Below, piece after piece: positions 9,606 through 45,054 of a stretch of 64,000 bases of DNA (the first letter of the stretch is position 1; every line of letters begins with the position of its first letter). The notes below the pieces were generated by a model. The model had not been told where the DNA came from. It was given only the letters and a program-made list of their open reading frames with translations, and made no database searches. Both the position numbers and the translations under genes were made by a program. The DNA is from Leptospiraceae bacterium. GTDB lineage: Bacteria; Spirochaetota; Leptospiria; Turneriellales; Turneriellaceae. Where the stretch lies: assembly GCA_025055765.1 (NCBI GenBank), contig JANWWS010000007.1:1-64000 (forward strand), written 5' to 3'.

Positions 9606-10373
9606 CTAACGAATTAAGACGACACGGAAAGACGTTTCATAAGAGGGTAAATCCCCCCTTAAATATCTCACCCTTAACCAAATGTAATACACCCCACTGG
9701 CAAGAGCCATGCCGCTGTCGGAGCGACCATCCCACAGGGTGGTCTCTTTACTATGGGTCTTGGCAGATACCAACTCATTTTGCCTTAGTTTTCGCACGAG
9801 CCGACCACTTGAGTCGTAGATTTCTAAAGTAAGCTGAGCATCTGCTTCTAGATCGTAGTCAATGTGTAGCTGCCCCTTACCCACAACAAAAGGATTGGGA
9901 TAGGCTATCAGACTTTGCCGACCAGTATAGTCAAGAACCACTTCTTGCACTATATTGCTGGGCATCGCGGGAAAAAGCAATAAAACTAGCATACGGCCTT
10001 CTGCCGCTGCTCTATGAGAGCTAATGTCATGACTTTGGGTTCCAGAGGCAATACTGCCCTGTAAAATGAGCTCCCCATCCCCAGCTTGCAAGCGGTAGAA
10101 TATGTTTGTTGCCCTAATGCGAAAGCTTTGCCATTTTTGACCAGGCTTCACGGTAAGGTAACGAATGGTTAAGCCTGCGTTTGGCCCTGGAGCAAGAGAA
10201 AAACCATGTGGGGCTATACTTAGCGTTGTGTTGTTTAGCTCAAAAAGAAGATTATACTTCTGTGGATTTTGAGCAATATCCCTGTCAATACGTAACTCTC
10301 CCGCGTGGGCAGCCTCTAACAAAAACAAAACCAAAGCAAAAAAAAGTTCCCTATTCCTGCCCATTGGCCACAA
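9606..10373 (-). CDS. Secreted protein with FlgD-Ig-like C-terminal domain
   Basis: The 255-aa product has a signal peptide (ATG at 10373 or, more plausibly for the hydrophobic core, at 10364). The N-terminal two thirds is beta-rich without a recognised family. Residues about 160-255 match FlgD Ig-like domains: YPNPFVVGKGQLHIDYDL, LTLEIYDSSGRLVRKL, and TLWDGRSDSGMALASGVYYIWL. Domains of this type end many exported proteins of Bacteroidetes, Fibrobacteres and spirochaetes and are related in form to type A C-terminal sorting domains. It overlaps the upstream sensor gene by 23 nt and touches the PorV-TPR gene, so all three are probably co-translated. Its pairing with a PorV-like barrel is repeated at 26-45 kb. 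Confidence 0.75.
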   Translation of the reverse strand: MWPMGRNRELFFALVLFLLEAAHAGELRIDRDIAQNPQKYNLLFELNNTTLSIAPHGFSLAPGPNAGLTIRYLTVKPGQKWQSFRIRATNIFYRLQAGDGELILQGSIASGTQSHDISSHRAAAEGRMLVLLLFPAMPSNIVQEVVLDYTGRQSLIAYPNPFVVGKGQLHIDYDLEADAQLTLEIYDSSGRLVRKLRQNELVSAKTHSKETTLWDGRSDSGMALASGVYYIWLRVRYLRGDLPSYETSFRVVLIR

Positions 10374-26041: not shown

Positions 26042-27367
26042 ATGGGAAGTTCTAAGAAAAAAGAACGAAGGGTACAATTGGTCCGGTGGAGCTGGCTGCT
26101 AGTTGTCTTGTTCTCTAGTAGCTCCCTCCACCCTTGGTTTGAGGAGTTCCGGCAGAGTGTTCGGGGAAAGGCTATGGCCAATGCCTTGGGGGCTTCTTTT
26201 GAGACAGCTGATGCCCTCTATTACAATCCCGCTTCCATTGCCCATGCTTCGAGTGTGGAGTTATTTAGTGGCTATGCCAAGCCAGCTGGTGGGTTTACGG
26301 CCTTTGATGATGGATCTTCCCTTAGCCAGTTTGATGTGGGACTCGTATTTCCCTTTAGTAACCCCATAAACCTTTATCAGGCAGGTTGGAAGAAGGACTT
26401 TATTACCACTAATGCAGCTTTAGGGCTTACCTTTGGCCAACAGAGGTATGATTCGGGGGATGGGGCTGCCATGTTGACCCAACGTCATGTAGGGATAAGT
26501 TATGCCAAAAATTTAGACAATGTGCTTTTTCAGGGGGCGCGTATTTCGATGGGGATAACGGGCAATATTTATATGCTCAATTTTGGTGGGATTGATGTTA
26601 TGAACAATGCGGCCTTTACGGCTACCTCAAAAACTTCCTTTTCGCCAGATGTGGGGGTGTTATACAATTTTTCTGATTACATTTTGGTATCTCTGGTGCT
26701 ACAGAATCTCTTGCCGGCTCGGATTTCTCCTCTTCAGAATGGGGAGACCCTTACCCGCACTACCCGTCTTGGTTTAGGTTGGCAGTTGGGGGATATAGGT
26801 CAGGTTCCCTTTTTGCAGCAGATTCTTGTGGTAGGTGAGTGGCGTATGCATTCTGCCCCTGATCAGGGTCAAAATGCCAATACCAACCTTGCTGGCATCA
26901 ACACTTATCATGTTGGTTGGGAGAGTTGGTATAAGATACCGAGGTATGTGGACATTGCTGGGCGATTGGGTTTTGCTTTAGGGGAGCAGAGCTATTCTGA
27001 GGCTAACTTAGGTTTTGGATTTTCGCGCTATTTTGATCCAAAGAAGCGTTATCGTTTTGATTTGAATTTCACGTGGTCGTGGTCTTCCTTTGCTTCGAGT
27101 CTTGGTGCTGATCATCGCTATTATGTGGCTGGGGTCTTTCGTTATTATTTTCCTGACTCTGCTTTTCCAGGAAGAGAGGGGCTTTCGGGTACAGGTGTAC
27201 GCAGTTTAGATGAAGACTTGTATAAGGAAGAGGAAGTTGTTCACCCAGAAAAAGGGGAAAGGGACAAGGATAACAAATCTCAAACAGGCAAGGAGCAGGG
27301 CAAAGGTAAGAATGTAAGTATTAAGTCAAAAAGTGAGGGGCAAAAACCTGCAGCGCAGAAACCATAG
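26042..27367 (+). CDS. PorV/PorQ-like outer-membrane beta-barrel with a charged C-terminal tail
   Basis: The chosen ATG at 26042 follows AAGGGGAGA and gives 441 aa; the frame is open 72 nt further upstream without such a site. A basic, long n-region precedes the membrane segment WSWLLVVLFSSSSL. The mature part begins VRGKAMANALGASFETADALYYNPASIA, the hallmark start of PorV/UPF0164-type barrels. It continues with amphipathic strands ending in a Tyr/Phe-rich region (YYVAGVFRYYF). The last 60 residues are Lys/Glu/Gln-rich and probably unstructured. It is the first gene of an apparent operon with a small Cys-patterned protein and two giant exported proteins that end in FlgD-like domains. PorV in Bacteroidetes takes part in type IX secretion; a similar role here is inference. 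Confidence 0.75.
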   Translation: MGSSKKKERRVQLVRWSWLLVVLFSSSSLHPWFEEFRQSVRGKAMANALGASFETADALYYNPASIAHASSVELFSGYAKPAGGFTAFDDGSSLSQFDVGLVFPFSNPINLYQAGWKKDFITTNAALGLTFGQQRYDSGDGAAMLTQRHVGISYAKNLDNVLFQGARISMGITGNIYMLNFGGIDVMNNAAFTATSKTSFSPDVGVLYNFSDYILVSLVLQNLLPARISPLQNGETLTRTTRLGLGWQLGDIGQVPFLQQILVVGEWRMHSAPDQGQNANTNLAGINTYHVGWESWYKIPRYVDIAGRLGFALGEQSYSEANLGFGFSRYFDPKKRYRFDLNFTWSWSSFASSLGADHRYYVAGVFRYYFPDSAFPGREGLSGTGVRSLDEDLYKEEEVVHPEKGERDKDNKSQTGKEQGKGKNVSIKSKSEGQKPAAQKP

Positions 27368-27376
27368 GAGGAAGGT

Positions 27377-27604
27377 ATGAAGAAGTTTTTTTTACTTGGT
27401 ATTTTCTTAGGTCTTGTGGGTGTTCTAGTTGCTCTTACGGAGAGTGAGAAGCAGTGTATTGAAGAAAAGCGCAAGAGTCTGCAGCAGGAAATCGAGCGCT
27501 GTCGTAAGCAGCACAGCGACCCCAAGGACATTTCTGTCTGTGCCCAGGCGGCGAAGCAGGAATTTGCGCTATTGGTAAAAACCTGCTATGAGAAAAAGGA
27601 GTAG
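27377..27604 (+). CDS. Small exported protein with a twin C-X14-C helical hairpin pattern
   Basis: The 75-aa product has a signal peptide (KKFFLLGIFLGLVGVLVA) and a mature part of about 55 residues. It contains exactly four Cys, spaced C-X14-C, then 12 residues, then C-X14-C. Both arms are predicted to be amphipathic helices joined by a short turn near SDPKD, so two disulfides could clamp an antiparallel hairpin, as in eukaryotic twin CX9C proteins, though with different spacing. GGAGG precedes the ATG. It sits 9 nt after the PorV-like gene and 3 nt before the first giant gene. I know no named family; a periplasmic chaperone or adaptor for the giants is a guess. Confidence 0.7.
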   Translation: MKKFFLLGIFLGLVGVLVALTESEKQCIEEKRKSLQQEIERCRKQHSDPKDISVCAQAAKQEFALLVKTCYEKKE

Positions 27605-27607
27605 GTT

Positions 27608-30600
27608 ATGCTCATGACTCGGTTTTTCACCTGGCAAATAATCTTTGGCTTTGTGTCGTCTCTAGTAGCCCAAAGTATCTTTGTTTATACGGGCTTTGAT
27701 TCCTCCTCAAACCCACCAGGTTGGGTAAACGATGGTCGGGTGGTTCCTGACTATGGGGGTGCGTGGAATAATGCGTGGCCCACTGCCCATAACTTTGGCA
27801 TTGCTTACGGCCGGGTGGGGGTTTTGAAGGACACAAGCAATAATGACGATCAAACAGTGCGAGTAATAAATAGTATGACCGGGGTTGTTGATATACTAGC
27901 CTTCCGCCCAGGCCTCCATACTCATCAGATACAAGGAAACTTTTATTATCCTGGCACCTCAACAATCATGCGCAGTATATCTTACTTGGGTCTATCTATA
28001 GGAAGAATGGCTCTTTATGATGGGCTTGCCGTAAATGCCAGCCCGCAGAGACCGGTGGGTTGGCAAATAACCCGCATAAGAGCAAGACTTGACCCACACG
28101 ATGATAATCTCAACCCAGAATCCCACCGTCATGCCAACCGGATGTCTTTTTATGTATTTGATAGTACGAACCAATCTTCCGTTTTCGGTCATGCCAACGC
28201 CACCTTTCCTCATATCATATCGCTTTACGAAACCTACCGAGCCCAAAGACCTACCACGGCAGACCCTCGCAGCACATGGGGTTTTTTTACCTCAGCCGAA
28301 AATGAGTTCAACTTAACAAATGCCACAAGGCCGGATGGCCAGCCCATTAATTTAAATGTGGGCGGCATTTGGTGGCGCTACGATGATGAGTGTGTTGGTT
28401 TCTCAGGACCTACCACCTATGGTTGTGCCGGTCAAAATAGTTCCAATAACGTAAATTCTCACCCTCTTGGTTTAAGAATCAGCACCGATGGTGAGCTCTT
28501 TTATTTTTACATTAACCCTGACCCAGATGGCAATAACCAACCGATAAGTAACGCTAATGAGTACATTCTTGTGGGAACGGCCCCTGCAACTTTTAGTAAC
28601 AACCTCAAGGCAATGATTGGGGTAGAATCAGAGCGCTACGACACAGAAATGCAATGGGCGGAGTTCGACAATTTCCTTATGCGCTCCGTAACTGATGGCA
28701 ATCCTGCGAACACTCGGGCTGAAATATACCCCTATGCTGGTAATGTGGGGCAGACCGTAAATTTTAATATTATTATTAACCCAACCATCAACACAAACGA
28801 TGCGGGCATTGCGGAAATCCGCATCCGCAAACCCTCCTCCTTTCCATCCTGGAATGCAAGCTCCGTGGAGGTATTTACCCATCATGGCACAGGAGTCAGC
28901 CATAGTGAAATCTCATCCATAAAGCGCATGGCCACGCACACCGTACAATCAAACTGCCAATACACGCTGCCTGCCTTAAATGAGGTGCGCCTCTGCGTGC
29001 AAGGGGACCTGCTTTTTATTCGCTTTCGCGCCCACTCCGTACTTAGTAACCAAGTGATTGGACCCACAACCCCCGACAAGCGTATTGCTATTCGTTTTAG
29101 CCAATCCCTACCCACAACAGCCATCCTAAGTGGTGCGGAATATCTCGTACATGTAAACAATGAAAAATACAATGCCACCCACACCGACAATAACACAGGG
29201 AATAATGGTCTTCCCTATGCCACCACAGGTTGGCAGCGCATCATGCCTGGCGATGCCATCACGGGGCAGGGTAACAGCACCCTTCAGGTGCAGGTACGGG
29301 ATATCCCCACGGGTTTTGCGAGTGTGACTCCTAATGTGATCTATGTGGGAAGCGCCCAAAACCTCCAGACGTTTATACAGACCCCCAATGACCCCAACAA
29401 CACAGGCATAAACCGAATAGAAATTGAAATATGGAAACAAAACTATGGTCTCAATGCCAACCCAAACTGCGATCAGCTTGGGGAATTAAACCCCTCAAAC
29501 CCCCATTGCTACACGGATGATGCGATTGTTAACTTAGCCACGGGGTGGGGGCTTTCTGCCACTAATTTTGCTTTAAGTGATCTCTTTCCTACAAATATCA
29601 CCTCAACACTTACAGCTGGCAACACAAAGGCGGTGATTAATATAACAGGAGGTAACGAAATACCAGGCACAGGGGGGCTTGACAAGATAACGCTTTTAGC
29701 AACGAGCACCCCCACGGTACTTACCCCCACCCCATATAGGGTCAAGGTGCGGCTTTTTAATACCAACGTTAGCACCACCATGGGCCATCTTGCTGGTACG
29801 GGAACTGTTTTCGACGCTACAAGTCAAATTATTAGGCTAAGGCCTGCAAAACCCATTGCCATGGCCAAGGTTGCCCCTTCGCCGACATCGGCTTGTTCGA
29901 GCAATGTTGCTGCCTATGCAGGTAATGCAGCCCCGGCAAACCCCAATCTCCGAGTTTGTAACACCATTAAAACAAATAGCGTGGAACTTACCCTGACAAA
30001 TAATGGCCTTGTGGGCAACGACATAAAGAGGGTCCGGATTGTTCTCCCTGATGAGGTGACGGCAGTTGGCGAGGTACAGGTACAGCTTGTTCAGGGGGCA
30101 AATTCCTTTAGCTTCAACAGAACCTCCCATCCGTCCAAATTCACGGTAAATCTCAGCACGCCTAAGTACCTTGAAATTGAAATGGCCAATGTCTCCGGAG
30201 CTCCTACGAATGCTGGTCTATTAGGCAATGTCTCACCCAAATACTCCGCTATAATTACCATGGAGCTAACAGACAATGTCACACCGCTTACAGGAAACCT
30301 AACCCACCATTTTACGGGCTATGTGGAAAACGGCAATGGGGACAACATCACAGACAATGCCTACAGTCAGGACGCATCAGGGAGTTGGACTCTCGCCTGG
30401 GTGCGGCCTTATGCTCGGGCAAAATTTGAGGTATACCGTGCAACTTCTTTTAGTTATCCTATTGGCAACCCTGCAGGCAATCGCGAGCTCTGGAACACGT
30501 CAACCAATAATACGGTTCGCCTCTCCGTTCAGGTTTACAACCCCTCGGTTAGTGATGACGCTACCAATGTAGGTAATCTCATACATGCCTTGCAGATTAC

Positions 30601-33600: not shown

Positions 33601-36091
33601 CAATCCCTATCCCTTAAATAACTCTACCGCTACAAACCCAGACCGTTTCCTCTTAACGGCTATCACCAATACCAGCTACACAACCACTTTAAATGGCGTC
33701 ACGCTTTCGGGTAAGCAAAATTTCATGCAACTTAAGCGGCCACAACCGCAAGCCGTAGCTTACCTCTATGAGCATGACGTGCAACTCGAAACAACCGCGG
33801 GTGTGCCTTTAGTAAACCTAAATCGAGATGATTCTTCGGGTCAGCATGTCAATGATAACCCAAACCCACCGGAGGACAACACTAACTTTAACGATGAGGA
33901 AGGAAAGAGAATCATACGTCTCATTATTGAAAACCAAGGAAGTGGCAATAACCACATAACTCAGGTGAAAATTAAAGCACCCAATGTATTTAATGGCTTT
34001 CATGCAACCAACATTGAACATGACCTAAATGCCTATACCGGAAATTCTTACTCTGCCGACCCCAATCTAGCTATGGCAAGCGGCCTAATGGTGGCAGGCG
34101 ATACAATTACCATTGACTACAACCCGGGCAGCTTCAATACAAGCACCAACAAAAAGTCGATAATCTCTATTCCTGTAAATTACCAGCTTCTGGATTTACC
34201 TACCACTAGCCAAACTTGGCAGGTCATTGTTAAAAACCACACAAGTGCTGGTGACTGCTTTAGCTCCCCCTCCGATGGTTGTAGCCAGGCCATTGTACCT
34301 CTTGGTAAGACACGCACCCATAGTTTTGTCTATCCTTCTGGTGGTCTTGAGCTTTCCTTAGTCTCAGGTCACAAGATATGGTCTATCAATAACCAGAACC
34401 CTTCGTTAAACTACAACGGTGCTCTTACGGTACGCCTAAGACCTAGGGGTAACCCACTGCGTTATGCTGCGCTAAAACTACCTGTAAATGTTTTACCAGG
34501 TCTGCCAGTTTTAGGAACCATCACAAGCAAGTATTCGCAAGATAACGGTAATTGCGCTAATCTAAATTTACATCACAGCAACACCATTTTGACTGTCGAC
34601 TATTCAGCCTGTACCGGCGAGCTGCCCGTTGATACAGCCGACGATATTACCATTGGGTTAAGTGGGGTTATTCCGAGTAACGCTGTGGCAAGTCATGCCG
34701 TAACAGGGCGCTTTATCTATGCCCCCCTGGTATCCAACCCGCCGTTTAGCACCAACTGTAGCACGGCGGCCCTTGTGGCCAGTGATCTTAACAACAACAC
34801 CGCCAACTGCCTTATGCCCATCGTACCTCAGGGACAGACTAACATTTACCAAATAGTAAGACCTCCTTTTGCTAATATAAAGGGAAATGTGCTACCCCTT
34901 AAAGATGTCTTCGACAATCCATTAAAGATTACGGTTTCCCTATCAGACCTACAGGGAAATATCCTCACGGATTTTAATGGAAATCCCCTAGTCGCAGAAA
35001 CCGACGCGAGTGGCATCTTTCGCTTTATTGGTGGTTTCACCCAGCTTAAGTCAGGTGGCTTGCACGATGGTCCGGGCATTCCCATGTGCGCCTCTTCAGA
35101 TGGTTTTGGTTGCCTTGATACGAAAACCGTGTTGCTGCGCTTTGCAGCACCTGGCTATGAGACCCTTGTTCGCGAGGTTACCATCACCCGAGGGCTTGAG
35201 CTTGACATAGGCAACATGGGAGAGCTGGCCCAAGAAGCATTTAAACCGCAGGCAGGAAAAGAACATCGTGCGGTAGGCCGCCAAGGCGCCAACAAATGTG
35301 CTGAGGTGGATTTACCCAACGATGCGATTTCAGAGACCTTCTCTCTTATGGTGCAATGCACCAACATGGCAAATCTTCTCACAAGCACGGAGGCTATAGA
35401 TCAAAACCGCAAAGACAAAGCCTATGCGGCCTTAAGTGAAGGTCGGGAAAAACTAAATGCCCCCTCAAACCCAGCAAACATGCCGGTCTATGTTATGAAC
35501 ATACGAGATGGCAAGGGTCAATTAATAGAAAACATTGAGCTCTTTTACCGTGATAAAAGACAAAATATCAATAAGGTGCAGGTTGAGGGTATCTTGCGGG
35601 TTTATTACGATGCCCAACTAATGCAATCCTTGGGCTATGACGAAGCGGAGCTGGCCGTCTTTACTTTTGATTCCTACCGAGGTGTATGGGTAAAACTGGG
35701 TGGCTTGGTGGATCTCCAGGCTAAAACGATATCGGTGCCAGTGGCTAGCCTGCAGCGCTATTACCTTGTGGCTGCCTCCCAAGATAGCGGGGGCATGATA
35801 TCGGACGTGGTGGTCACCCCGCGACTTTTTACGCCAGGGCATGGCCGTCACTTTAACCGCATGACCTTGCAGTTCCAGCTCAGAGAACCTGTCGATAAGT
35901 ACGAGGTAGCCATCTTTGATCTCTCAGGCCGGCTTATTATTAAATTTGAAAGACCAGGTACTTTTGGCAGTGGCCAAATCTTCTGGGACGGCCATGATGA
36001 GCGTGGCAACCTTGTGGCAGGTGGCATTTATATCTATGTAATTCGTGCCAAAAATGAAAAATACCGAGGAACAATTGTTGTAACTCGATGA
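27608..36091 (+). CDS. Giant repetitive exported protein 1 (2827 aa) with FlgD-like C-terminal domain
   Basis: The product has a signal peptide (MTRFFTWQIIFGFVSSLVAQS). Next comes a globular domain of about 370 residues with jelly-roll-like features. About 11 beta-sandwich-like modules then follow with an anchor of the form N.I..vrI..P at residues near 397, 597, 800, 986, 1175, 1376, 1527, 1716, 1907, 2112 and 2281. A segment beginning IKGNVLPLKDVFDNPLKITV looks like a carboxypeptidase regulatory domain. A ZU5-like stretch, FDSYRGVWVKLGGLVDL, follows. The last 95 residues are FlgD-Ig-like (VAIFDLSGRLIIKF, IFWDGHDERGNLVAGGIYIY). It is rich in Asn, Thr and Pro and has Cys pairs, which suits surface exposure. 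The next gene is a paralogue 20 nt away. Confidence 0.8.
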   Translation: MLMTRFFTWQIIFGFVSSLVAQSIFVYTGFDSSSNPPGWVNDGRVVPDYGGAWNNAWPTAHNFGIAYGRVGVLKDTSNNDDQTVRVINSMTGVVDILAFRPGLHTHQIQGNFYYPGTSTIMRSISYLGLSIGRMALYDGLAVNASPQRPVGWQITRIRARLDPHDDNLNPESHRHANRMSFYVFDSTNQSSVFGHANATFPHIISLYETYRAQRPTTADPRSTWGFFTSAENEFNLTNATRPDGQPINLNVGGIWWRYDDECVGFSGPTTYGCAGQNSSNNVNSHPLGLRISTDGELFYFYINPDPDGNNQPISNANEYILVGTAPATFSNNLKAMIGVESERYDTEMQWAEFDNFLMRSVTDGNPANTRAEIYPYAGNVGQTVNFNIIINPTINTNDAGIAEIRIRKPSSFPSWNASSVEVFTHHGTGVSHSEISSIKRMATHTVQSNCQYTLPALNEVRLCVQGDLLFIRFRAHSVLSNQVIGPTTPDKRIAIRFSQSLPTTAILSGAEYLVHVNNEKYNATHTDNNTGNNGLPYATTGWQRIMPGDAITGQGNSTLQVQVRDIPTGFASVTPNVIYVGSAQNLQTFIQTPNDPNNTGINRIEIEIWKQNYGLNANPNCDQLGELNPSNPHCYTDDAIVNLATGWGLSATNFALSDLFPTNITSTLTAGNTKAVINITGGNEIPGTGGLDKITLLATSTPTVLTPTPYRVKVRLFNTNVSTTMGHLAGTGTVFDATSQIIRLRPAKPIAMAKVAPSPTSACSSNVAAYAGNAAPANPNLRVCNTIKTNSVELTLTNNGLVGNDIKRVRIVLPDEVTAVGEVQVQLVQGANSFSFNRTSHPSKFTVNLSTPKYLEIEMANVSGAPTNAGLLGNVSPKYSAIITMELTDNVTPLTGNLTHHFTGYVENGNGDNITDNAYSQDASGSWTLAWVRPYARAKFEVYRATSFSYPIGNPAGNRELWNTSTNNTVRLSVQVYNPSVSDDATNVGNLIHALQITVPTGFTGISAVTSAKGGNITIASNQIRLDYPTPIPPGDNDIISFDVQEQCYEPSNNWGTTPSSTTNCPELSHLTFGVRVSNINNPLNFNTTVSSGYQVGPGYNAIALSIDSNVIRFVNQPLLAVGYAEVCHHTPVGTRCSTSETADNENNPLLADISLTENLGKHNVIRYYLKNLALPGGHIRQVRIYIRGNNDTGWTIGGADALNSSWLSSTQAFTNVTCVKNGSSAGTTATADPTYTNYYIDCDFSGAANGIDANDVAYVQFQMRHTTNMPANQFISLRARATNDRFPTTFKPDDTPQSHIAAGTSTQMPHPTYPEGSTGSIKIQISKPAASVRGFLTLTNQTNSAPFDGINVLRRRSTPAQNVTAFYYLENTGVGTNRVYKARIAIPTPWQGKVSVGGNSIVKNAPVSLAGTDILIDYDPANNGGTYLAPGEHDRIQLTLAHDINTEGHSLWALSATNDVPPDPIVYDNGTVYPQKSNLLYIITPARVRITSSQDVNTLNPGQPTQFYTTNTSPTLVLRVQNDNATGGRPIERIRIVYPTPAAGEFVINSVSSSIMGTISVPTTPNPIIINYSPPLAAGNLDDITINFKRNAPADPFEPLVHNWQVQVYYNDSTTDPLVDLATNFTGTGGDRLDVSDNVFSGHSLATGFVLPPLPVKAYISVNTAVFNNRGNHLGLAFPGWGNLDGVGNPPGDTYDTNLDDNGFTFVVKNETTLSGNHIRYLKITAPTIVQEISKCENDITIVRQPGSTTLTGTSNATSNPNCTITSNADCTSFTEDYCIETQGVPAGELVVLFNPGVIQGGHEIYLRTAITKNPSVTTPQSGAFIVQASNDPSGANLQTATTPIAEGGTNYDRSLTLYYYQPTELIEYYVEKKNPSDGESGNPTMLYKTESDHKVVLFLRNSGHASSQIRQFSVTLPPNVFTLNAGSKFILKNSANVTLTGGTHYTCATNCDHTNGKINANSFTIALENPHWLNANDFLRLELDNFGTAATANSGSNPYPLNNSTATNPDRFLLTAITNTSYTTTLNGVTLSGKQNFMQLKRPQPQAVAYLYEHDVQLETTAGVPLVNLNRDDSSGQHVNDNPNPPEDNTNFNDEEGKRIIRLIIENQGSGNNHITQVKIKAPNVFNGFHATNIEHDLNAYTGNSYSADPNLAMASGLMVAGDTITIDYNPGSFNTSTNKKSIISIPVNYQLLDLPTTSQTWQVIVKNHTSAGDCFSSPSDGCSQAIVPLGKTRTHSFVYPSGGLELSLVSGHKIWSINNQNPSLNYNGALTVRLRPRGNPLRYAALKLPVNVLPGLPVLGTITSKYSQDNGNCANLNLHHSNTILTVDYSACTGELPVDTADDITIGLSGVIPSNAVASHAVTGRFIYAPLVSNPPFSTNCSTAALVASDLNNNTANCLMPIVPQGQTNIYQIVRPPFANIKGNVLPLKDVFDNPLKITVSLSDLQGNILTDFNGNPLVAETDASGIFRFIGGFTQLKSGGLHDGPGIPMCASSDGFGCLDTKTVLLRFAAPGYETLVREVTITRGLELDIGNMGELAQEAFKPQAGKEHRAVGRQGANKCAEVDLPNDAISETFSLMVQCTNMANLLTSTEAIDQNRKDKAYAALSEGREKLNAPSNPANMPVYVMNIRDGKGQLIENIELFYRDKRQNINKVQVEGILRVYYDAQLMQSLGYDEAELAVFTFDSYRGVWVKLGGLVDLQAKTISVPVASLQRYYLVAASQDSGGMISDVVVTPRLFTPGHGRHFNRMTLQFQLREPVDKYEVAIFDLSGRLIIKFERPGTFGSGQIFWDGHDERGNLVAGGIYIYVIRAKNEKYRGTIVVTR
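32869..32916 (+). repeat. Short 12-nt tandem-like repeat inside giant protein 1
   Basis: AACGAGTAATGC occurs at 32869-32880 and 32905-32916, with a one-base variant (AACGAGTAATCC) at 32881-32892 and a 12-nt unrelated unit between. It is in frame and encodes TSNA/TSNP copies, so slippage would keep the frame. Confidence 0.6.
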
Positions 36092-36110
36092 AATCTTTCG
36101 TCATATAGAG

Positions 36111-39100
36111 GTGGTTATGAGAAAGTGGCTTTTTGTTCTAGCACTTGGGATAAGCAAGACCTTGTGGGGATATGCAGCGTATTTTGAGAATTTCGCGACA
36201 CCTCCGCTTAGTTGTGGCGTCGCGGGAAACTGGTGCCTAAACTTCCCTGTTGGGCGCCTAGGTTTTATGTTGGTAGAACACAGAGGAAATACTCAAACAC
36301 CCTATTTAGATATACAACAAGCCACAGGATCTTACTACTCCATAGCGCCGGCTTTTGGGGGCTACCTCTTCCTGAGGGGTATGGCAAACAATTACGACAT
36401 AATTTACAACAACATATGGACGGGACGGATGGCCCGCTACGAAACCCTCTACAACGCCTCTGCTACAGACCCCTTTGGCGTGCAGGTGATCCGTTACTTT
36501 GCTGTGATAGACCCCAGTGATCGCGAGGATAACGCGATATACAACCGCAGTAATATTGGTTTATGGCTTGTACAAAATAACGCGGTTACCTCGGAGACCA
36601 ATTTTACAGCGAGCTCGCCCACGGGTGACTGGGCCCCTATAAATAACGCCATTTATTTTTATGAAATGCAAATTAACAGGGAGACCCAGCCAATCTGGGG
36701 TTATTTTGCGGGTAGCGATGTTAATTTAAATGCCAATTTAGCTTCTGCCCCCCGCACTAATCTTACGGGCACCGATAACATTGGCAGCACGCCAAATGGC
36801 TTAATCTTTGAAAACGATAATTCCTCACCAGCACACAATGGTCGCATCATCGTGAGCCGTACAGGTGCCGGTGCGACTATGAATAGCGGTTCTTGTCCGG
36901 CAACCATGAGCGAGATCAAGGGTTACAATTATGTCCGTGCCACAAGCCGATTTGACGACAATATCGCGGCTAGCGGCGGGAATGGCGGCACATGTGGGGT
37001 GGGCAACCAGCGCGAGGTAGGCATGCGTCTAACTCACGATGGCTCTATTGTGCGCATGTACCTAAACCCAAACCCACACAGCCGTCCGGGCACACACAAT
37101 GGGGTAAATTACTCTAGTTTTCGTAACGAATGGTACCGTGTTGGGCAGCATATGATAGGCTTTAATACGAACATGAAAGTAATGCTGGGTCAAGAGCAGC
37201 TATTTTTTCTTTCCGCTCTCACCGAGGCCGTTTTTGATAATTTCCTCATACGACCCATTGCCCAATCGGTACAGGCTGACATAATACAGCCCGACACGGA
37301 CGGGGAACATAGAGTTCTACAATCAGCGCCACAACGTTATGCCATAAAGATCACCCCTTCCATGAATGCCACCGATGCAGGAATTGGGGAAATCTACATC
37401 CGCAAACCTTCTGGTACGGGTGAAATTTTTGCAGGGGCAAACTGGAATCGCAATTCGTTGATTGTGTGTCTTGACCCCGATAGCAACGCCTCTTCGGGAG
37501 AAAGCTGCAATGGCCCAGGAGAAATAAAACTCCAGTACCGATCAGGATCCGACCATGCAACGCCTAACAGCACCCTAACTAATGGGGAATTTCAGGCCTA
37601 TACCTTAAATGATGACTTCAGCTTAGCTACGGGTGACAGCGGTAATATTTTAGCGATTCGGTTAAAAAAACAGGCGAGCCCAAATAACAACCACTTTACC
37701 ATGACTAGCCCGGGAGCCCATATTCGCGTGTACTTTGACCTAACCGCTACAAACACAAGTTACGAAGGCCAAAACTTTACTGTTTGGGTACACAATGAAA
37801 AATTTCATGATACGGCTCAAGAAGATGTACTTGATGATGGTTTAGCCAACAATTCTTCAATCCGCTATGCGACAACAGAGAGAATGCGCGCGACCGTGGC
37901 AAACCCAAATGATCTCTTGGTAAAAGCCTTTAGTGCGACACCGGCAGCCAACATGGCCGTTTCTATTTCCCCCGACCCCCTCTACTGGGGCACCTATTTG
38001 CCTTTTGCCACCATTGAGTTGCGCACTCCCTCAACTGGCAATCACACTGATATAACCTATGCTGTAATCCAGCTGCCGCCAGAAGGTGACATAGACAGTT
38101 TTGATTTTAGCCTTTACAGTGGCGGAGTGATCACTTCCTATATAGATTCTTTGCGCATTCCAGAGAGCGAAGAGGATGGCATTGGCACTGACCTCATGAC
38201 CTTCACCACATCTACGGCTACGATTGACGATTGCCTAAACAACAACCATCGCTTTTGCTACTACTCCCATCCCTCCAATCCCAACTATCGGCGTATCGTG
38301 GTAAACTATGGCACAACATATCGTATCCCGGGAAAAAATGGCTATGACCGTATCACCTTCTTTTTAGAACAAGCACCAGAATTTACAGTAAACACGCAAA
38401 TAATAGCAAACTGGAGTGCCTGGGTTGACTCAAAGGGCTTCATTAACGGAACCACCATGCAGGCCGTCACTGCCTACCAAGGAAATGTTGCCAATATACA
38501 GACTATTGTACGTGCCCAGCCACCCCAAACCTCAGCAAAAATTTCTCCCACCGTGCTTACCAACAATGTAGCCAACAATAACCCAACAAGCGGTACGGTT
38601 ACCTATATTGTAAAAAATAACGGGGGCCCCTCCAACCACATAAGATACTTAGAAATTCTTATACCCTACGTTACCTATACATGTCCCGCAGGGGATCCTC
38701 ATGAAAATGATTGCAATGGCTCGGAGCCAGGCACCGGGACTACGAGGCAGAATATGGCAACACCTGTGGCAACTGACTTCACGAATCTTCGCATCAATGG
38801 CGCCACCATCACTCCTGCACCCACGGTAAATGTGGTAGGTGATACCTCTCTAGGGGGGGTAAACTACCGGGTGGTGCGCATAAGCTTTGATTCTACCGCA
38901 AAACTTATGAGTGGTCAGACATTTACGGTTGACATGAATTTGAAATATTACCGCAACACGAACGAGCCCAACCAAACCTTTACTATTCGCCATAGAGCAG
39001 ATAACGAAAATTACACAACGCCTCCACCATACCCATACCCACGCTATAGCGATGGGGGTGAAGATGGCACGGGCACATGGACTCTTACACTTACCCCACC

Positions 39101-42100
39101 CAAGCCCATGGGGGAAACCTTTGTCTTTCGCGGAAACCACACAAATCCAACTCATCAAAATAACCCACCCATCATATACACCAATGAAATAACGACCTCC
39201 GATGTAGTACTTAATATGAAAATTTACAACCGTGGGGGTGTCGGTAACAATATACACAACGTAGAAATCCATGTACCTTCTTTTTATAATGTAGTCGATG
39301 CCTGCAGTACCTACCTGCAAAGTTTAGGCGTTGCGGAGTACTGCATTTCGCATCCTGGTACAAATCTCGTACTAACAAACACCCCCTTTACCCGCACAAT
39401 TAAGATTGATTATGCTTCCCTGGGGCAGCCTCTTAAGTCTTCCTATGATACCATTTCCGCAACACCCTGTCCCACAGAGACCAATGTCCCCTGTGAGATT
39501 GTACGCATCACTCTCCAGCAAGATGCAACGCTCTCCGATCCTTCGTTAGGTGATCAGCTTTTTGCGGTAAGTGATAGTGATAGCGATAATGTCTTTGAAA
39601 CACTCACAGGACCTTCGGCCGACGGAGATTCCACGCGAAGGAGAGGTACTTTTTTTGCCAAACTAAACAATGCTTCTGGGGCTATTAGCTATACAAAAGA
39701 ACTAACGGGTCGTAGTATGACATCTCGTTTGGAATTCCCCGACCCGGCAGCAGAGTCTTTTATCACCACTCAGTTTTTCCTCGACACAGGCCTTTACGAA
39801 GTCGATGCCACACAGCCATCCACAACATTTAAGGCCTTTGTTAAAAATACAGGGACACTAGCTGGCAATGAGATTTATCGGCTCGACATCCAATTTCCCA
39901 CCTCACCCACCATTGTAACTGGTACTCCGGCCGTCTTGCAAATACAGCGTGACCACAATGGCACTCTCTCAACCTTGGTCCCAGGGGCAAGCAACGACTA
40001 CACTGTTTCCTGGAACAGTGGTAGCCAAGTACTTACCATAACTTACGCTGATACAAAAAGGCTTCCCCCCTCTTTAAACCTCGGGGACGGCACCTCATAC
40101 GTAGACATTATAGAAATCCAGTTCACGGACACCGTTACCACCACGGGGAATAGGCCTGTATCTATCGTCGCATACAATAAAGTAGGGGCTACCATAACCG
40201 GTAAATCCGTTACCGCTGCTCTTTATAATGGCTCCGACCCAGATGACAATTACAACAATAGCAATAACCACGACCAAAACCTATTCTATAAGATACCCAA
40301 GGCTTATGGCACAGCGACTCTCATGCCAAAAACCGTCTTTACAGGCAGCGGGCAGAGCATCCAATCAAAATTCTACCTACAAAACAAGGCTGGCAGCACC
40401 ACTACAAATCGCATCCACAAGGTTGAAATTAAATTACCAGCTGGGGTAACGGTAGCTAATTCAAGCGCTGTGAACGCACGGCCAGGGGTAACAGTAAATT
40501 GCCTTGCCGGCAATGGCTTCACCGGAGGCTGCCAAGGACCAACAGAATCTCTGGAACTCGACTATACCACAGCCACGCCTGCCTTTCTCGATCCGCAAAA
40601 TGATCCTGATGATGAGGTTTTCCTTAGCTGGACCTACACCTTCACCACGGAAGGAACGGTGGCCTTTGAGGTTCGCTTTGACAACAACGATGGTACGGGT
40701 TATGCAGGGAACTTAGAATCATTACCAGCTAGTTTATACACAGTACATGTCTACCAGAGCCCCACCATGAAGGTGGAAGTGATAAGCCAACCAGGGGACC
40801 CCACGAACCCACCCTCGATGGTAAACAACCAAACTATCAATTCCACGGTACCGGCATCGGCATATCATCGTTTTCAACTAACGGTTACTCCGGCTACAAA
40901 TCCATTATCGCCAAAGATCCACCGTCTGCGTATTACCCCCCCCAACTACCTCGATGTAGCAAGCCTTGATTTAAGTGATGCTCTTCCTGCCGGCACCACC
41001 ATGTCCCAAGATGGAACCTATCTTTATGTAAACTTCCCTGGGGGGCAATTAACAGCAGCCAGTACGGTATTAAAATTTCGCCTCAAAGACAACCGGGCAT
41101 TTAACGTACCGGGGGTAAATCCCCATAACGATGACCAGCCCTGGAAGGTGGATGTAGCTTATTTCCATGATCTTTTCAATAATTCTACCTATAGCCATAC
41201 AAACCTACCTGGCCCCTCTTTTGCAGGAAAACTCGTGCCCGATGGTGTCGTAGATGAGGTTGTCTATGTGCCAGACTCCGCCTATAACATAGCTCGAGCC
41301 ATACCTGCTGTCTCTGGCTCAGGTGCAGCTGGCTTAGCATGGAATTCCACTCGCATGACAAACCCCTCTCCGAAGTTTGTCATGTACCTGAGACCAAAGG
41401 ATGTTTTCCGCATCAATTTGGGTGATCCCCCCTATCAATGGGTGCAGAAAATCATTGTGGTAAACCAAGGAGAAGCCGACAACGATTTGCGTTATGTGGA
41501 ATTTAAGCCCCACGCTAGTTTATTCAACACCCCCAATAGCCAAATGGCAGGATGTACCACAAGTGCAAGTTGCAATTTAGATACAGCGCCATTTATCGTA
41601 AAAAAAGGACTTACGGGAGCCCCGGAAAGCACATACACCACGCTAACCTATGGCATAAGCAACCACTACTACCTGCGTTCTGTTGAAAGCGCAAGTGCCA
41701 CCTACACCCTGAGCCTAAACGAAACCGTAAGGCTTATTCTCTCTGAGGCCCAGCGCGTGAAGCACAACGAGACTCTAATTATAGAATTCCTCGCACAACA
41801 TGAAAAAGCGGCTACAGGCAGCTTTTTATGGAGCTTTAAAGCCGGTAACTACAACCATACCGTAGCTGCTGCCAATAACAGCGATCCTGTCCCGCTGGGA
41901 GAGTCAGAGACCACCACCGTGGTCACACCTTCGTACACCGCCAATTTCCTAATAGAACAAACCAACGGTGTGCCTGGCAAGCGTGATATCACCGCTCAGT
42001 CAACTCGCAATACTTTTGTCTTTAAACTCACAAATAACTCGAGCGGCGGCGATATGATCACTGAGGCTAAAATACATTTCCCAGGTTATTTTCAAGTAAG

Positions 42101-45026
42101 CTCCGCCGTGGTAAGCTCAACCCCAGCAGCTACGGTAACCACCAATAGCAATACAACGGCTTACGATACGAGTGGTATCGAAAGCTCTCTACCTTCTGCG
42201 GAGTTTAGCTCATTTAATAAGAACAACTACATCTTACTTAACTTTGGCTCAGGCATTGCTCCAGGCCAAAGTGCCACCATCCAGGTGACTATTGATGATA
42301 CCTTCTTTCACCACAGCCCTATTACCATGTCGAGCCGCGAGTTAAGTGGGGGTGGCTTTATACAAAGGTCAGGAAATACCACCGAACCAAATGGCCTTGG
42401 TGGTAACGACAACGGCACCTGTGAACCTGGTGAGATCTGTGCCGGTAGAGTAACTATAAAAGCTTCCGCCAAGTACAGCACAAGCGGGGGTGCCTTTCAG
42501 TACATTACGTCCTTCCCAAGTCGCTCAGACAGCATAGAAATACTCCAGGCTAATATACCGAGCTTTGCCTGGGTGGTGAGCGAAAATTTACCCATGGAGG
42601 GAAGTACCCCACGCAACCACACGGTGGATGTGCGCATAAAAAATGGTGCCCCCAATACCACAGTGGGCCAGGGCAATGTGATTTACCGTGCGAAGATACG
42701 TATACCCCGGCAAGGGGGAATAAACGCAATTAATAACCTGCAATGGCGCAAAACGGGCAGTCCAAGCTGGATATCTCTTACAGGTAGTTGTAGTGGAGAC
42801 ACTTGCTCAGGAAACTTTACTGCCACAACCTCAACATATTATTTCGCCTATCTTGACTTTGAACCTCATGGTGGTCTCTTGCCAGAGGAAACAGCTGAGG
42901 TGCGCTTTGTTATTTCAGAAAACTTCTCAAGCAATACTTTCATTGACCTTGGCTTTCGGGTAGATTCCGAACGCTGGGTTACCGCTCAGGGGCTTTTTGA
43001 CAACACAAGTAGCTCTCGTATCCAAAACGACACCAATTTTACCCAGGGAGACCTTGCTGTAACCGAGCTTGCGGCTCAAAACCAGCGTGTGAACTTCATA
43101 CCACCAGATCCCCCTTCCGAAGGGTTTATCTCTCTTTCTGTAGATCGGGACATTGTCACAGGTGTTTACAACGCAGCTCAAAAGAAATTTGAATTTAGCC
43201 AAGCACAACTTTCTCTCTTGGCTACCTATTGCCATCCTTCCTCACCTAACTTAGACACCGCTTGCGATGCCCGCTTTACCCTCTATACTCTTGGTGAGTA
43301 TCATGATGTTTACTACGAAATTTCTAATGGCTCGCAGAACTACCCCCTCGAGGAGCTAAAGCTGAGGCTTTCTATCTTTGATATAAATCAACCCGGCAAT
43401 GGCTGGTCTAACATACAAATCGCAGGGATAACAAGTGCCCGTCTAGGTGAGCTTTCCTCTCCAAGTTGCACCTACCTCGACCTCTATAGTAGCAACAACG
43501 CCATAGCCGATGACAGCCCAGGAACGGACACGCACAATGAGACCTGCGAACTTTCTATTAGCTATGCGTCGCTTCCCGATGGGGGAATCCCCGTGGGTCA
43601 AAAAGACACTATCCGGTTGCGCTTGAGACTCCTGCCATCTATCCATAACTACTTACAACACCCAGATGCGGGTACTATTAGTTATGGCCTCTCTGGTAAA
43701 CAGTCCGGCTATGATATCTCACGCGCTATTGAGATCTTTTTCTCGGCCCAAAGCAAAAGGGCAAGCCTTGTGGATTATAAGGATGTAGCAGTTCCCGCGA
43801 ACAAACAGCAATATATCTACATACGCAAAGCACCCTTTGGCCGTATAACAGGTCTTCTGGCGCCCAAAGATGCCCCAGTAAACTTTCAGTTGGTGAAAGC
43901 AGATGGTTCTGGAGCCACTCTTTATGGCGGTGGCCAGGTTCCCACCGTTTCTGCAGGCCATGATGCGCAAACCAACTACGGGCGATTTACCTTTGACCGT
44001 GTCCCTGCCGGAGAGTCTTACGCCATCCGTATGGTCTCAGCAGAACCCATCTACGATGTAGCTACTTTTGTACGCACGAGGGACGATGCGCAAAAAGCAG
44101 ACAAAAGCCTCTTTCCTGTGCAGCAAAATCAAGTGACCAGAGTCGAAGATCTGCTGCGTCCGCCCTATACTCAGGTACCCATTGAGGTCTCATACCGCCA
44201 ACTCAATGCAGCTATTGATAACGAAGTGAGAGCCCCTCTTGATACAAGGACCCGGATTATTTTGCCGGCAGGAACATTAGACAACAACCCACGGATTAAC
44301 ATCCGTATTGAGCCAGTGGCAGCCCAGGCATGGGATGTGCTTGCCCACGCTCCCTACCAAATGGAGCTCATTGCAGGTAAAAGTGTTGCCAATGTGGCAA
44401 ACCACAAGGTGTTTAATTTGCTAAACGAATTGCCAAAAACAGGCCAACTTACACCTGTGGTTGAAAATCAACTCAAAAATGAAGCCACCCTTATTTTAGG
44501 CTACGACCTCGCCGACTTCCCAGGTGTTAGTGAAAATAAGCTGGCTGTTTTCTACTGGGATATCACTCGCCGCCGCTGGGTAAAACTAGGTGGTCTCGTG
44601 AACAGCCAAGAACAAACTATAACAGTAAAAATCACATATATGCACCGCACCTACACGATATTGCCTGATGAGCAAAGCCAAGGTATTTCTCATGTCACCG
44701 TGTTTCCGCGAGTATTCACCCCTGGCCGAGCTGACAGCGCCTATAAAGAAAGCCAGGAGCAATTTGGAGCTGAGCGGACATATGGAAACCTAAAGCTAAC
44801 TTTTGAACTTGGTACAAATACCTTGGGACAAAAATACGAGGTAGGTATCTATAACTTAAGCGGTCGACTCATGCGTAAGTGGGTCAAAGAAAACACGACA
44901 GGTCAAGGTAGCATCTATTGGGATGGCCGAGATGAATACGGTGGCTTAGTTGCCGGTGGCATTTATATTTACGTGATTCAAATTGGTGATCAGAAATACC
45001 GTGGCACTCTTGTCGTGGCCCGTTAG
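36111..45026 (+). CDS. Giant repetitive exported protein 2 (2971 aa) with FlgD-like C-terminal domain
   Basis: It is a paralogue of the preceding protein with the same plan. The signal peptide is RKWLFVLALGISKTLWGYA, after an AGAGGTGG ribosome binding site. The N-terminal domain is about 390 residues. About 11 modules have anchors near residues 421, 643, 840, 1044, 1251, 1431, 1600, 1790, 1980, 2189 and 2411. A carboxypeptidase-regulatory-like stretch (FGRITGLLAPKDAPVNFQLV) follows, then a ZU5-like WVKLGGLVNSQEQTITV, and then the FlgD-Ig-like end (VGIYNLSGRLMRKW, IYWDGRDEYGGLVAGGIYIY). The final 30 residues are almost identical in the two giants, while the modules differ greatly. This fits a conserved export or anchoring signal on diverging surface modules. 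A bidirectional hairpin follows the stop. Confidence 0.8.
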   Translation: MVMRKWLFVLALGISKTLWGYAAYFENFATPPLSCGVAGNWCLNFPVGRLGFMLVEHRGNTQTPYLDIQQATGSYYSIAPAFGGYLFLRGMANNYDIIYNNIWTGRMARYETLYNASATDPFGVQVIRYFAVIDPSDREDNAIYNRSNIGLWLVQNNAVTSETNFTASSPTGDWAPINNAIYFYEMQINRETQPIWGYFAGSDVNLNANLASAPRTNLTGTDNIGSTPNGLIFENDNSSPAHNGRIIVSRTGAGATMNSGSCPATMSEIKGYNYVRATSRFDDNIAASGGNGGTCGVGNQREVGMRLTHDGSIVRMYLNPNPHSRPGTHNGVNYSSFRNEWYRVGQHMIGFNTNMKVMLGQEQLFFLSALTEAVFDNFLIRPIAQSVQADIIQPDTDGEHRVLQSAPQRYAIKITPSMNATDAGIGEIYIRKPSGTGEIFAGANWNRNSLIVCLDPDSNASSGESCNGPGEIKLQYRSGSDHATPNSTLTNGEFQAYTLNDDFSLATGDSGNILAIRLKKQASPNNNHFTMTSPGAHIRVYFDLTATNTSYEGQNFTVWVHNEKFHDTAQEDVLDDGLANNSSIRYATTERMRATVANPNDLLVKAFSATPAANMAVSISPDPLYWGTYLPFATIELRTPSTGNHTDITYAVIQLPPEGDIDSFDFSLYSGGVITSYIDSLRIPESEEDGIGTDLMTFTTSTATIDDCLNNNHRFCYYSHPSNPNYRRIVVNYGTTYRIPGKNGYDRITFFLEQAPEFTVNTQIIANWSAWVDSKGFINGTTMQAVTAYQGNVANIQTIVRAQPPQTSAKISPTVLTNNVANNNPTSGTVTYIVKNNGGPSNHIRYLEILIPYVTYTCPAGDPHENDCNGSEPGTGTTRQNMATPVATDFTNLRINGATITPAPTVNVVGDTSLGGVNYRVVRISFDSTAKLMSGQTFTVDMNLKYYRNTNEPNQTFTIRHRADNENYTTPPPYPYPRYSDGGEDGTGTWTLTLTPPKPMGETFVFRGNHTNPTHQNNPPIIYTNEITTSDVVLNMKIYNRGGVGNNIHNVEIHVPSFYNVVDACSTYLQSLGVAEYCISHPGTNLVLTNTPFTRTIKIDYASLGQPLKSSYDTISATPCPTETNVPCEIVRITLQQDATLSDPSLGDQLFAVSDSDSDNVFETLTGPSADGDSTRRRGTFFAKLNNASGAISYTKELTGRSMTSRLEFPDPAAESFITTQFFLDTGLYEVDATQPSTTFKAFVKNTGTLAGNEIYRLDIQFPTSPTIVTGTPAVLQIQRDHNGTLSTLVPGASNDYTVSWNSGSQVLTITYADTKRLPPSLNLGDGTSYVDIIEIQFTDTVTTTGNRPVSIVAYNKVGATITGKSVTAALYNGSDPDDNYNNSNNHDQNLFYKIPKAYGTATLMPKTVFTGSGQSIQSKFYLQNKAGSTTTNRIHKVEIKLPAGVTVANSSAVNARPGVTVNCLAGNGFTGGCQGPTESLELDYTTATPAFLDPQNDPDDEVFLSWTYTFTTEGTVAFEVRFDNNDGTGYAGNLESLPASLYTVHVYQSPTMKVEVISQPGDPTNPPSMVNNQTINSTVPASAYHRFQLTVTPATNPLSPKIHRLRITPPNYLDVASLDLSDALPAGTTMSQDGTYLYVNFPGGQLTAASTVLKFRLKDNRAFNVPGVNPHNDDQPWKVDVAYFHDLFNNSTYSHTNLPGPSFAGKLVPDGVVDEVVYVPDSAYNIARAIPAVSGSGAAGLAWNSTRMTNPSPKFVMYLRPKDVFRINLGDPPYQWVQKIIVVNQGEADNDLRYVEFKPHASLFNTPNSQMAGCTTSASCNLDTAPFIVKKGLTGAPESTYTTLTYGISNHYYLRSVESASATYTLSLNETVRLILSEAQRVKHNETLIIEFLAQHEKAATGSFLWSFKAGNYNHTVAAANNSDPVPLGESETTTVVTPSYTANFLIEQTNGVPGKRDITAQSTRNTFVFKLTNNSSGGDMITEAKIHFPGYFQVSSAVVSSTPAATVTTNSNTTAYDTSGIESSLPSAEFSSFNKNNYILLNFGSGIAPGQSATIQVTIDDTFFHHSPITMSSRELSGGGFIQRSGNTTEPNGLGGNDNGTCEPGEICAGRVTIKASAKYSTSGGAFQYITSFPSRSDSIEILQANIPSFAWVVSENLPMEGSTPRNHTVDVRIKNGAPNTTVGQGNVIYRAKIRIPRQGGINAINNLQWRKTGSPSWISLTGSCSGDTCSGNFTATTSTYYFAYLDFEPHGGLLPEETAEVRFVISENFSSNTFIDLGFRVDSERWVTAQGLFDNTSSSRIQNDTNFTQGDLAVTELAAQNQRVNFIPPDPPSEGFISLSVDRDIVTGVYNAAQKKFEFSQAQLSLLATYCHPSSPNLDTACDARFTLYTLGEYHDVYYEISNGSQNYPLEELKLRLSIFDINQPGNGWSNIQIAGITSARLGELSSPSCTYLDLYSSNNAIADDSPGTDTHNETCELSISYASLPDGGIPVGQKDTIRLRLRLLPSIHNYLQHPDAGTISYGLSGKQSGYDISRAIEIFFSAQSKRASLVDYKDVAVPANKQQYIYIRKAPFGRITGLLAPKDAPVNFQLVKADGSGATLYGGGQVPTVSAGHDAQTNYGRFTFDRVPAGESYAIRMVSAEPIYDVATFVRTRDDAQKADKSLFPVQQNQVTRVEDLLRPPYTQVPIEVSYRQLNAAIDNEVRAPLDTRTRIILPAGTLDNNPRINIRIEPVAAQAWDVLAHAPYQMELIAGKSVANVANHKVFNLLNELPKTGQLTPVVENQLKNEATLILGYDLADFPGVSENKLAVFYWDITRRRWVKLGGLVNSQEQTITVKITYMHRTYTILPDEQSQGISHVTVFPRVFTPGRADSAYKESQEQFGAERTYGNLKLTFELGTNTLGQKYEVGIYNLSGRLMRKWVKENTTGQGSIYWDGRDEYGGLVAGGIYIYVIQIGDQKYRGTLVVAR

Positions 45027-45032
45027 GAAAAG

Positions 45033-45054
45033 CTCTTTTGCTTTGCCAAAAGAG
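45033..45054. terminator. Hairpin between the convergent giant-protein operon and the MarR gene
   Basis: CTCTTTTG at 45033-45040 pairs perfectly with CAAAAGAG at 45047-45054 around a 6-nt loop. The T-run is inside the stem, so as a classic terminator it is weak on either strand, but its place between converging genes supports the role. Confidence 0.45.

What the first reader, a model, noticed from the sequence alone, without database searches (positions are those of the whole stretch)
26042..45026. PorV-like barrel, twin-CX14C small protein and two giant FlgD-tailed proteins as one surface-display operon
Four genes are packed with gaps of 9, 3 and 19 nt. The first is a PorV/UPF0164-like barrel, the second a small exported protein with a fixed four-Cys pattern, and the last two are exported giants of 2827 and 2971 aa. 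Both giants end in an almost identical FlgD-Ig-like C-terminal domain, while their modules have diverged. In Bacteroidetes, PorV works with C-terminal domain cargo in type IX secretion. Here the barrel and cargo are directly linked, and a small Cys protein is inserted. I know of no described system with this combination in spirochaetes. The type IX analogy is inference.
Basis: partly seen in the sequence, partly recalled or inferred. Interest (0 to 1): 0.85.

Follow-up and report, generated by a model that had tools for sequence, protein, structure and literature searches.

The report
Type IX-like secretion set in spirochaetes
A spirochaete operon encodes an outer-membrane barrel and two giant exported proteins with a type IX-like C-terminal export tag, and the same genome carries a distant relative of the type IX channel, so a secretion route thought to be confined to Bacteroidota and their relatives probably also exists in spirochaetes.

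Summary
The operon is real. The barrel, a 75-aa protein and the 2827- and 2971-aa giants sit with gaps of 9, 3 and 19 nt. The genome also encodes, on another contig, a 1999-aa homologue of SprA/Sov, the type IX (T9SS) translocon (TIGR04189, E=1e-48, below its curated cut-off). A profile of 23 spirochaete homologues searched against all PDB sequences finds only SprA (9e-31). The barrel's orthologue profile finds only PorV of that same complex (weak, E=0.014), and 9 of 10 orthologues match PorV- and PorP/SprF-family models. All 24 giant tails tested match T9SS sorting-domain models as well as FlgD_ig. In 393 Spirochaetota genomes, barrel orthologues and giant tails co-occur in 20 genomes (22 have tails, 21 barrels), and all but one of either set also has SprA. 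They are adjacent in 17 of 21, usually giant-giant-barrel. PorU, GldL, GldM and GldN were not found in 25 genomes, without a positive control. The 75-aa Cys protein is an orphan and not part of the conserved set. Best reading: a reduced or divergent T9SS-like pathway in which a dedicated PorV/SprF-like barrel collects two giants from SprA for surface display. Secretion itself is inferred.

The parts
26042..27367 (+). PorV/PorP(SprF)-like outer-membrane barrel, 441 aa, with a charged Lys/Pro-rich C-terminal tail; proposed dedicated shuttle/anchor
27377..27604 (+). 75-aa exported or N-anchored protein with two CX14C pairs (Cys 27, 42, 55, 70); orphan, not a conserved part of the system
   Evidence: absent in L001/L002
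27608..36091 (+). giant exported protein 1, 2827 aa (marginally closer to the 'alpha' line of giants; assignment also rests on gene order)
36111..45026 (+). giant exported protein 2, 2971 aa from GTG (ATG at 36117 is an alternative start; 'beta' line)
35822..36088 (+). C-terminal T9SS-like / FlgD-Ig-like sorting domain of giant 1
44706..45023 (+). C-terminal T9SS-like / FlgD-Ig-like sorting domain of giant 2
45033..45054 (.). 8-bp inverted repeat between giant 2 and the convergent MarR-like gene; its T-run lies on the - strand; marks the end of the unit

Best explanation
The operon makes the cargo and carrier of a T9SS-like outer-membrane secretion pathway. Proposed steps: (1) both giants cross the inner membrane by Sec (signal-like N-termini: seen in sequence). 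(2) Their C-terminal Ig-like domain is recognised in the pore of the SprA homologue encoded elsewhere (C41:107934-113930); homologies shown, recognition inferred. (3) The operon's PorV/SprF-like barrel docks at SprA, binds the domain through its extracellular loops, and carries or anchors the giant at the outer surface; inferred from F. johnsoniae structures and from type B cargo/shuttle gene pairs. (4) The two giants together form a surface coat or adhesin layer, as the T9SS-exported pair TfsA/TfsB does in Tannerella; this is conjecture. No motor or sortase homologue was detected, so the energy source and the attachment chemistry are unknown.
For: SprA: own protein matches TIGR04189 at 1.1e-48, 165.5 bits; collinear segments; the 23-sequence profile hits only SprA 6h3i/6h3j in all of PDB, E=9.3e-31, over residues 132-903 and 1158-1528. 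Barrel: only PDB hit is PorV 6h3i_F, E=0.014; 9 of 10 orthologues match PorV_fam (best 1.3e-12) and 9 of 10 PorP/SprF (best 3.8e-10). Tails: 24 of 24 match TIGR04183 (best 1.7e-7), CHU_C (best 3.1e-7), PorU and PorZ models; the profile also matches the PorU tail (4.8e-4) and, weakly, the extreme C-terminus of gingipain tails. Co-occurrence in 393 genomes: tail and barrel together 20 (22 and 21 singly), SprA in 21/22 and 20/21 against 101/393 overall. Adjacency in 17 of 21. SprA, barrel and strong giant tails are all undetected in the sister genus g6. Carrier/cargo logic: PMC10994853, PMC12618676.
Against: Own-genome matches to the T9SS family models are all below their curated cut-offs. The barrel-PorV match in PDB is weak, and some orthologues also match FadL (Toluene_X, 0.0032). 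The tail's best Pfam match is FlgD_ig, and Foldseek ranks generic Ig folds above PorU. PorU, GldL, GldM and GldN were not found. The barrel is unlinked in 4 of 21 genomes. About 80 SprA-positive genomes lack this giant pair, so SprA cannot serve it alone. The AlphaFold model of the barrel failed (pLDDT 30, 3 sequences). Fisher p-values ignore shared ancestry.
Confidence: 0.75

Rival explanations
1. A complete but highly diverged T9SS: motor, ring and sortase are present but beyond the reach of Bacteroidota profiles.
For: SprA itself scores below its curated cut-off, so smaller parts such as GldL and GldN could be missed; no genome with a known T9SS was available as positive control.
Against: GldM (524 positions), GldN and PorU gave no credible hit in 25 genomes, including complete ones. 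Only weak GldL-model hits appeared, and that model also rings in unrelated controls.
Confidence: 0.3
2. The barrel is a surface anchor rather than a shuttle: SprA exports the giants alone and the barrel holds them at the surface, as proposed for PorP with PG1035.
For: PorP/SprF model matches; a charged C-terminal extension in most orthologues that would face the periplasm; PMC12618676 cites the PorP-PorE anchoring proposal.
Against: In F. johnsoniae the cognate SprF-like partner is needed for secretion itself (PMC12618676).
Confidence: 0.3
3. The barrel is an ordinary FadL-type transporter and the giants are periplasmic or otherwise exported proteins with a FlgD-type Ig domain; the linkage is incidental.
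For: FlgD_ig is the best Pfam match of the tail; three barrel orthologues match Toluene_X weakly.
Against: Barrel and giant tails co-occur almost one-to-one, with adjacency in several families; SprA is present in the same genomes; the tails end flush at a C-terminal R/K; PorV is the barrel profile's only PDB match.
Confidence: 0.1

Closest known systems
Type IX secretion system of Bacteroidota (SprA-PorV translocon, F. johnsoniae 6h3i/8gl6)
   Same: SprA-family translocon, PorV-family barrel, cargo with signal peptide and Ig-like C-terminal domain; profiles of the barrel and of SprA hit two chains of the same solved complex
   Different: Spirochaetota rather than Bacteroidota/FCB; own matches below curated cut-offs; PorU, GldL, GldM and GldN not found; the barrel is encoded with its cargo
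Type B CTD cargo with cognate PorP/SprF shuttle (SprB-SprF type pairs)
   Same: Large surface protein with a C-terminal domain and a dedicated barrel gene next to it, usually directly downstream (PMC12618676); barrels match the PorP/SprF model
   Different: One barrel serves two giants; the tails match type A models in all 24 and type B in 14 of 24; in this window the barrel lies upstream
Tannerella forsythia S-layer pair TfsA/TfsB, T9SS-exported (PMC4175972)
   Same: Two large CTD-bearing surface proteins as a pair; their surface layer requires sov (= sprA)
   Different: TfsA/TfsB are about 133-151 kDa without glycans, roughly half the size; no sequence relation tested; a coat role here is conjecture
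FlgD Ig-like domain (PF13860)
   Same: Same fold and best Pfam match of the tail; the genome's own FlgD also rings weakly (window 9669-9872 -)
   Different: The tails end flush at a conserved R/K terminus on exported giants and also match T9SS tail models

Membership tests
Type IX secretion system | SprA/Sov translocon | tested here: met
   TIGR04189 E=1.1e-48 (165.5 of 200 bits, so below the equivalog cut-off); only PDB hit SprA, 9.3e-31
Type IX secretion system | PorV (or PorP/SprF) carrier barrel | tested here: met
   At superfamily level: 9/10 orthologues match PorV_fam and PorP_fam, but the window's own protein only at 0.01; PDB PorV 0.014
Type IX secretion system | Sec signal plus C-terminal sorting domain on cargo | tested here: inconclusive
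   24/24 tails match TIGR04183 and CHU_C at low E-values, yet own tails are below cut-off and FlgD_ig scores as well or better
Type IX secretion system | PorU sortase (peptidase C25) | tested here: not met
   No hit over the cut-off in 25 genomes; own genome none; no positive control, so divergence is not excluded
Type IX secretion system | GldL/GldM proton-driven motor | tested here: not met
   No credible hit; weak GldL hits also ring in unrelated controls; no positive control
Type IX secretion system | GldK/GldN (PorK/PorN) ring | tested here: not met
   GldN: no credible hit in 25 genomes. GldK not tested
Type IX secretion system | PorX/PorY, SprE/PorW, SkpA, PPI, PorT | not tested
Type IX secretion system | Cargo reaches the cell surface in a SprA-dependent way | not testable with these tools
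   Needs genetics or proteomics
UPF0164 (PF03687) | Match to the family model | tested here: inconclusive
   No match in own genome or in Pfam scans; no control genome rang

The most novel reading that the evidence does not exclude
Spirochaetota have a motor-less and sortase-less ancestral or reduced T9SS, consisting of a SprA translocon with cargo-encoded PorV/SprF-like barrels, that builds a two-protein giant surface coat. It would show that SprA export can be powered without the GldLM motor and that the system lies far outside Bacteroidota and the FCB group.
Probability: 0.35. Interest if true: 0.92.

Novelty: new variant of a known kind. Interest (0 to 1): 0.8.

Why it matters
Reviews describe T9SS as specific to Bacteroidota or to FCB phyla; [quoted passage not shown] Here SprA homologues occur in about a quarter of 393 sampled Spirochaetota genomes, and in about 20 of them together with a conserved cargo-barrel set. 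If the pathway works, it gives environmental spirochaetes a defined route for displaying proteins of about 300 kDa, it provides a natural test of whether SprA transport needs the GldLM motor, and it supports the idea that each carrier barrel can be dedicated to its own cargo.

Tried and rejected
UPF0164 label: no match. PDB search with only 6 SprA homologues: nothing useful; the 23-sequence profile settled it. Fold search of the tail model: generic Ig folds, with PorU and FlgD among the hits, so not discriminating. SprA was not modelled because only window or fetched-collection proteins were permitted. Small Cys protein as a system part: rejected. FlgD as the origin of the tail hits: the genome's own FlgD scores only 24 bits against 140-160 for the giants. 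Literature searches for T9SS or SprA in spirochaetes found no report; the library holds open-licence papers only.

Full report
Observation. The four-gene unit is as described: barrel 26042-27367, 75-aa protein 27377-27604, giant 1 27608-36091, giant 2 36111-45026, all on the + strand, with gaps of 9, 3 and 19 nt and a Shine-Dalgarno-like sequence before each start. The gene upstream is divergent, and a convergent MarR-like gene lies beyond an inverted repeat at 45033-45054, so the unit stands alone. The two tails are about 54-55% identical rather than almost identical.

Where the genome sits. The window is on contig C20 of a 2.5-Mb, 99% complete genome. The nearest loci come from sulphur-cave MAGs labelled Turneriella parva and Caldithrix sp. 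by their depositors. One genome of the same family is 4.4 Mb in two contigs, which fits T. parva (inference from size). I treat the host as a Turneriellaceae-like member of Spirochaetota; this assignment is inference.

Conservation of the unit. In the sister genus (L001, L002) barrel, giant 1 and giant 2 follow in the same order, but the barrel's stop abuts the giant's ATG and there is no small gene. The small Cys protein has no credible homologue in 40 relatives. It is best seen as a lineage-specific insertion.

The wider family. Neighbourhoods of strong tail hits show tandem pairs of about 2550-2600-aa giants, and in several families the barrel orthologue follows directly: G106, G125, G129, G153, G081 (giant-giant-barrel), G121, G100, G066 (giant-barrel, upstream part cut or partial). 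By coordinates the barrel also adjoins a tail in G094, G145, G070, G080, G077 and G058. In G060, G071, G088 and G049 the barrel lies elsewhere. The giants fall into two lines, alpha and beta, each alignable over its whole length between families. Own giant 2 is clearly beta; own giant 1 is only marginally closer to alpha. The conserved core is therefore alpha-beta-barrel, with the barrel at the 5' end in the window's family.

The translocon. A search for SprA (TIGR04189) found a 1999-aa homologue at C41:107934-113930 in this genome and in relatives with the operon, but not in G005. Scored alone, the own protein reaches 165.5 bits, E=1.1e-48 (curated cut-off 200). A profile of six homologues found 101 of 393 Spirochaetota genomes, many at full length. 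A profile of 23 of them against all PDB chains matched only SprA of F. johnsoniae, E=9.3e-31, collinear over residues 132-903, 987-1093 and 1158-1528. The gene keeps its neighbours in several genomes, and single-contig genomes such as G071 carry it, so contamination is unlikely.

The barrel. The window protein alone matches PorV_fam only at 0.01. Across ten orthologues, nine match PorV_fam (best 1.3e-12) and nine PorP/SprF (best 3.8e-10); FadL is weaker and in three only. The orthologue profile's only PDB hit is PorV, chain F of the same 6h3i complex, E=0.014. Each match is weak taken alone. It is telling that two independent profiles point to two chains of one solved complex. Most orthologues share a charged C-terminal extension after the barrel.

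The tails. All 24 tails examined match T9SS type A sorting (TIGR04183, best 1.7e-7), CHU_C, PorU and PorZ models; 14 match type B; all also match FlgD_ig, often better. The profile matches PorU's tail in PDB (4.8e-4) and, weakly, the extreme C-terminus of gingipain tails (0.016-0.09); FlgD ranks first. All tails end flush with R or K after a G-(T/S/K)-x-hydrophobic strand. The AlphaFold model (pLDDT 75) shows seven strands in the last 97 residues, and published T9SS CTDs are described as a seven-stranded Ig-like sandwich (PMC11285876).

Co-occurrence. In 393 genomes, strong tail hits (E<1e-15) are in 22, barrel orthologues (E of about 2e-28 or better) in 21, and both in 20 (Fisher 2e-30). SprA is in 21 of 22 and 20 of 21, against 101 of 393 overall (1e-12 and 6e-12). 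These p-values ignore shared ancestry; about ten families contribute. The single exception (G077) is 76% complete. Genus g6 of the same family lacks SprA, the barrel and strong tails.

What is missing. PorU (peptidase C25), GldM, GldL and GldN gave no credible hit in 25 genomes. No T9SS-positive genome could be included as a control, so these are absences at profile sensitivity only.

Mechanism. In F. johnsoniae, PorV closes the lateral opening of SprA, its loops bind the cargo tail inside the pore, and the carrier-cargo complex leaves sideways; the energy step is release (PMC10994853). Type B cargo uses dedicated PorP/SprF barrels usually encoded just downstream (PMC12618676). The gene pairing here matches the second arrangement. 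I infer that the operon's barrel is the dedicated carrier or anchor of both giants. The paired-giant layout recalls the T9SS-exported S-layer pair TfsA/TfsB (PMC4175972); that parallel is conjecture.

Membership. It works like a T9SS in its outer-membrane part (translocon, carrier, tagged cargo). I do not file it as a full T9SS because motor, ring and sortase were tested and not found.

Novelty. No report of SprA or T9SS in spirochaetes was found in the open-licence library, and PMC11285876 states absence outside FCB phyla. TXSScan (PMC4793230) found T9SS only in Bacteroidetes.

Noticed in passing
L031:271-1683 (own contig C41:93271-94683): A second PorV-like barrel (336 aa, PorV_fam 5.6e-11) directly preceded by a 130-aa lipoprotein-like protein whose end weakly matches the T9SS type A tail (0.0023): a second cargo-barrel pair in the same genome.
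   Followed up: partly
L015/L016 (G058:C130) and L009: A cluster of PorV-like barrels interleaved with proteins ending in FlgD/T9SS-like tails, in a SprA-positive genome.
   Followed up: no
L039:4100-6826 (own contig C1): 908-aa OmpA-type protein related to Lsa66 with internal FlgD-Ig-like domains; proteins of this size may account for many of the weak tail hits in other genomes.
   Followed up: partly
control genomes: The SprA model also rings, below cut-off, in Thermus composti, a hint of SprA-like proteins in Deinococcota.
   Followed up: no
window giants against other families: The window family's giants are rich in cysteine (22-30 Cys; 22 also in the 4185-aa giant of G049) compared with 0-11 in the other families examined; the one genome with the small four-Cys protein is in this group, but its sister genus lacks that gene.
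   Followed up: no
L087:862-17187 (G003:C85): A 5441-aa exported protein with a different FlgD/T9SS-like tail in a SprA-positive genome of the same family in which the barrel was not found.
   Followed up: no
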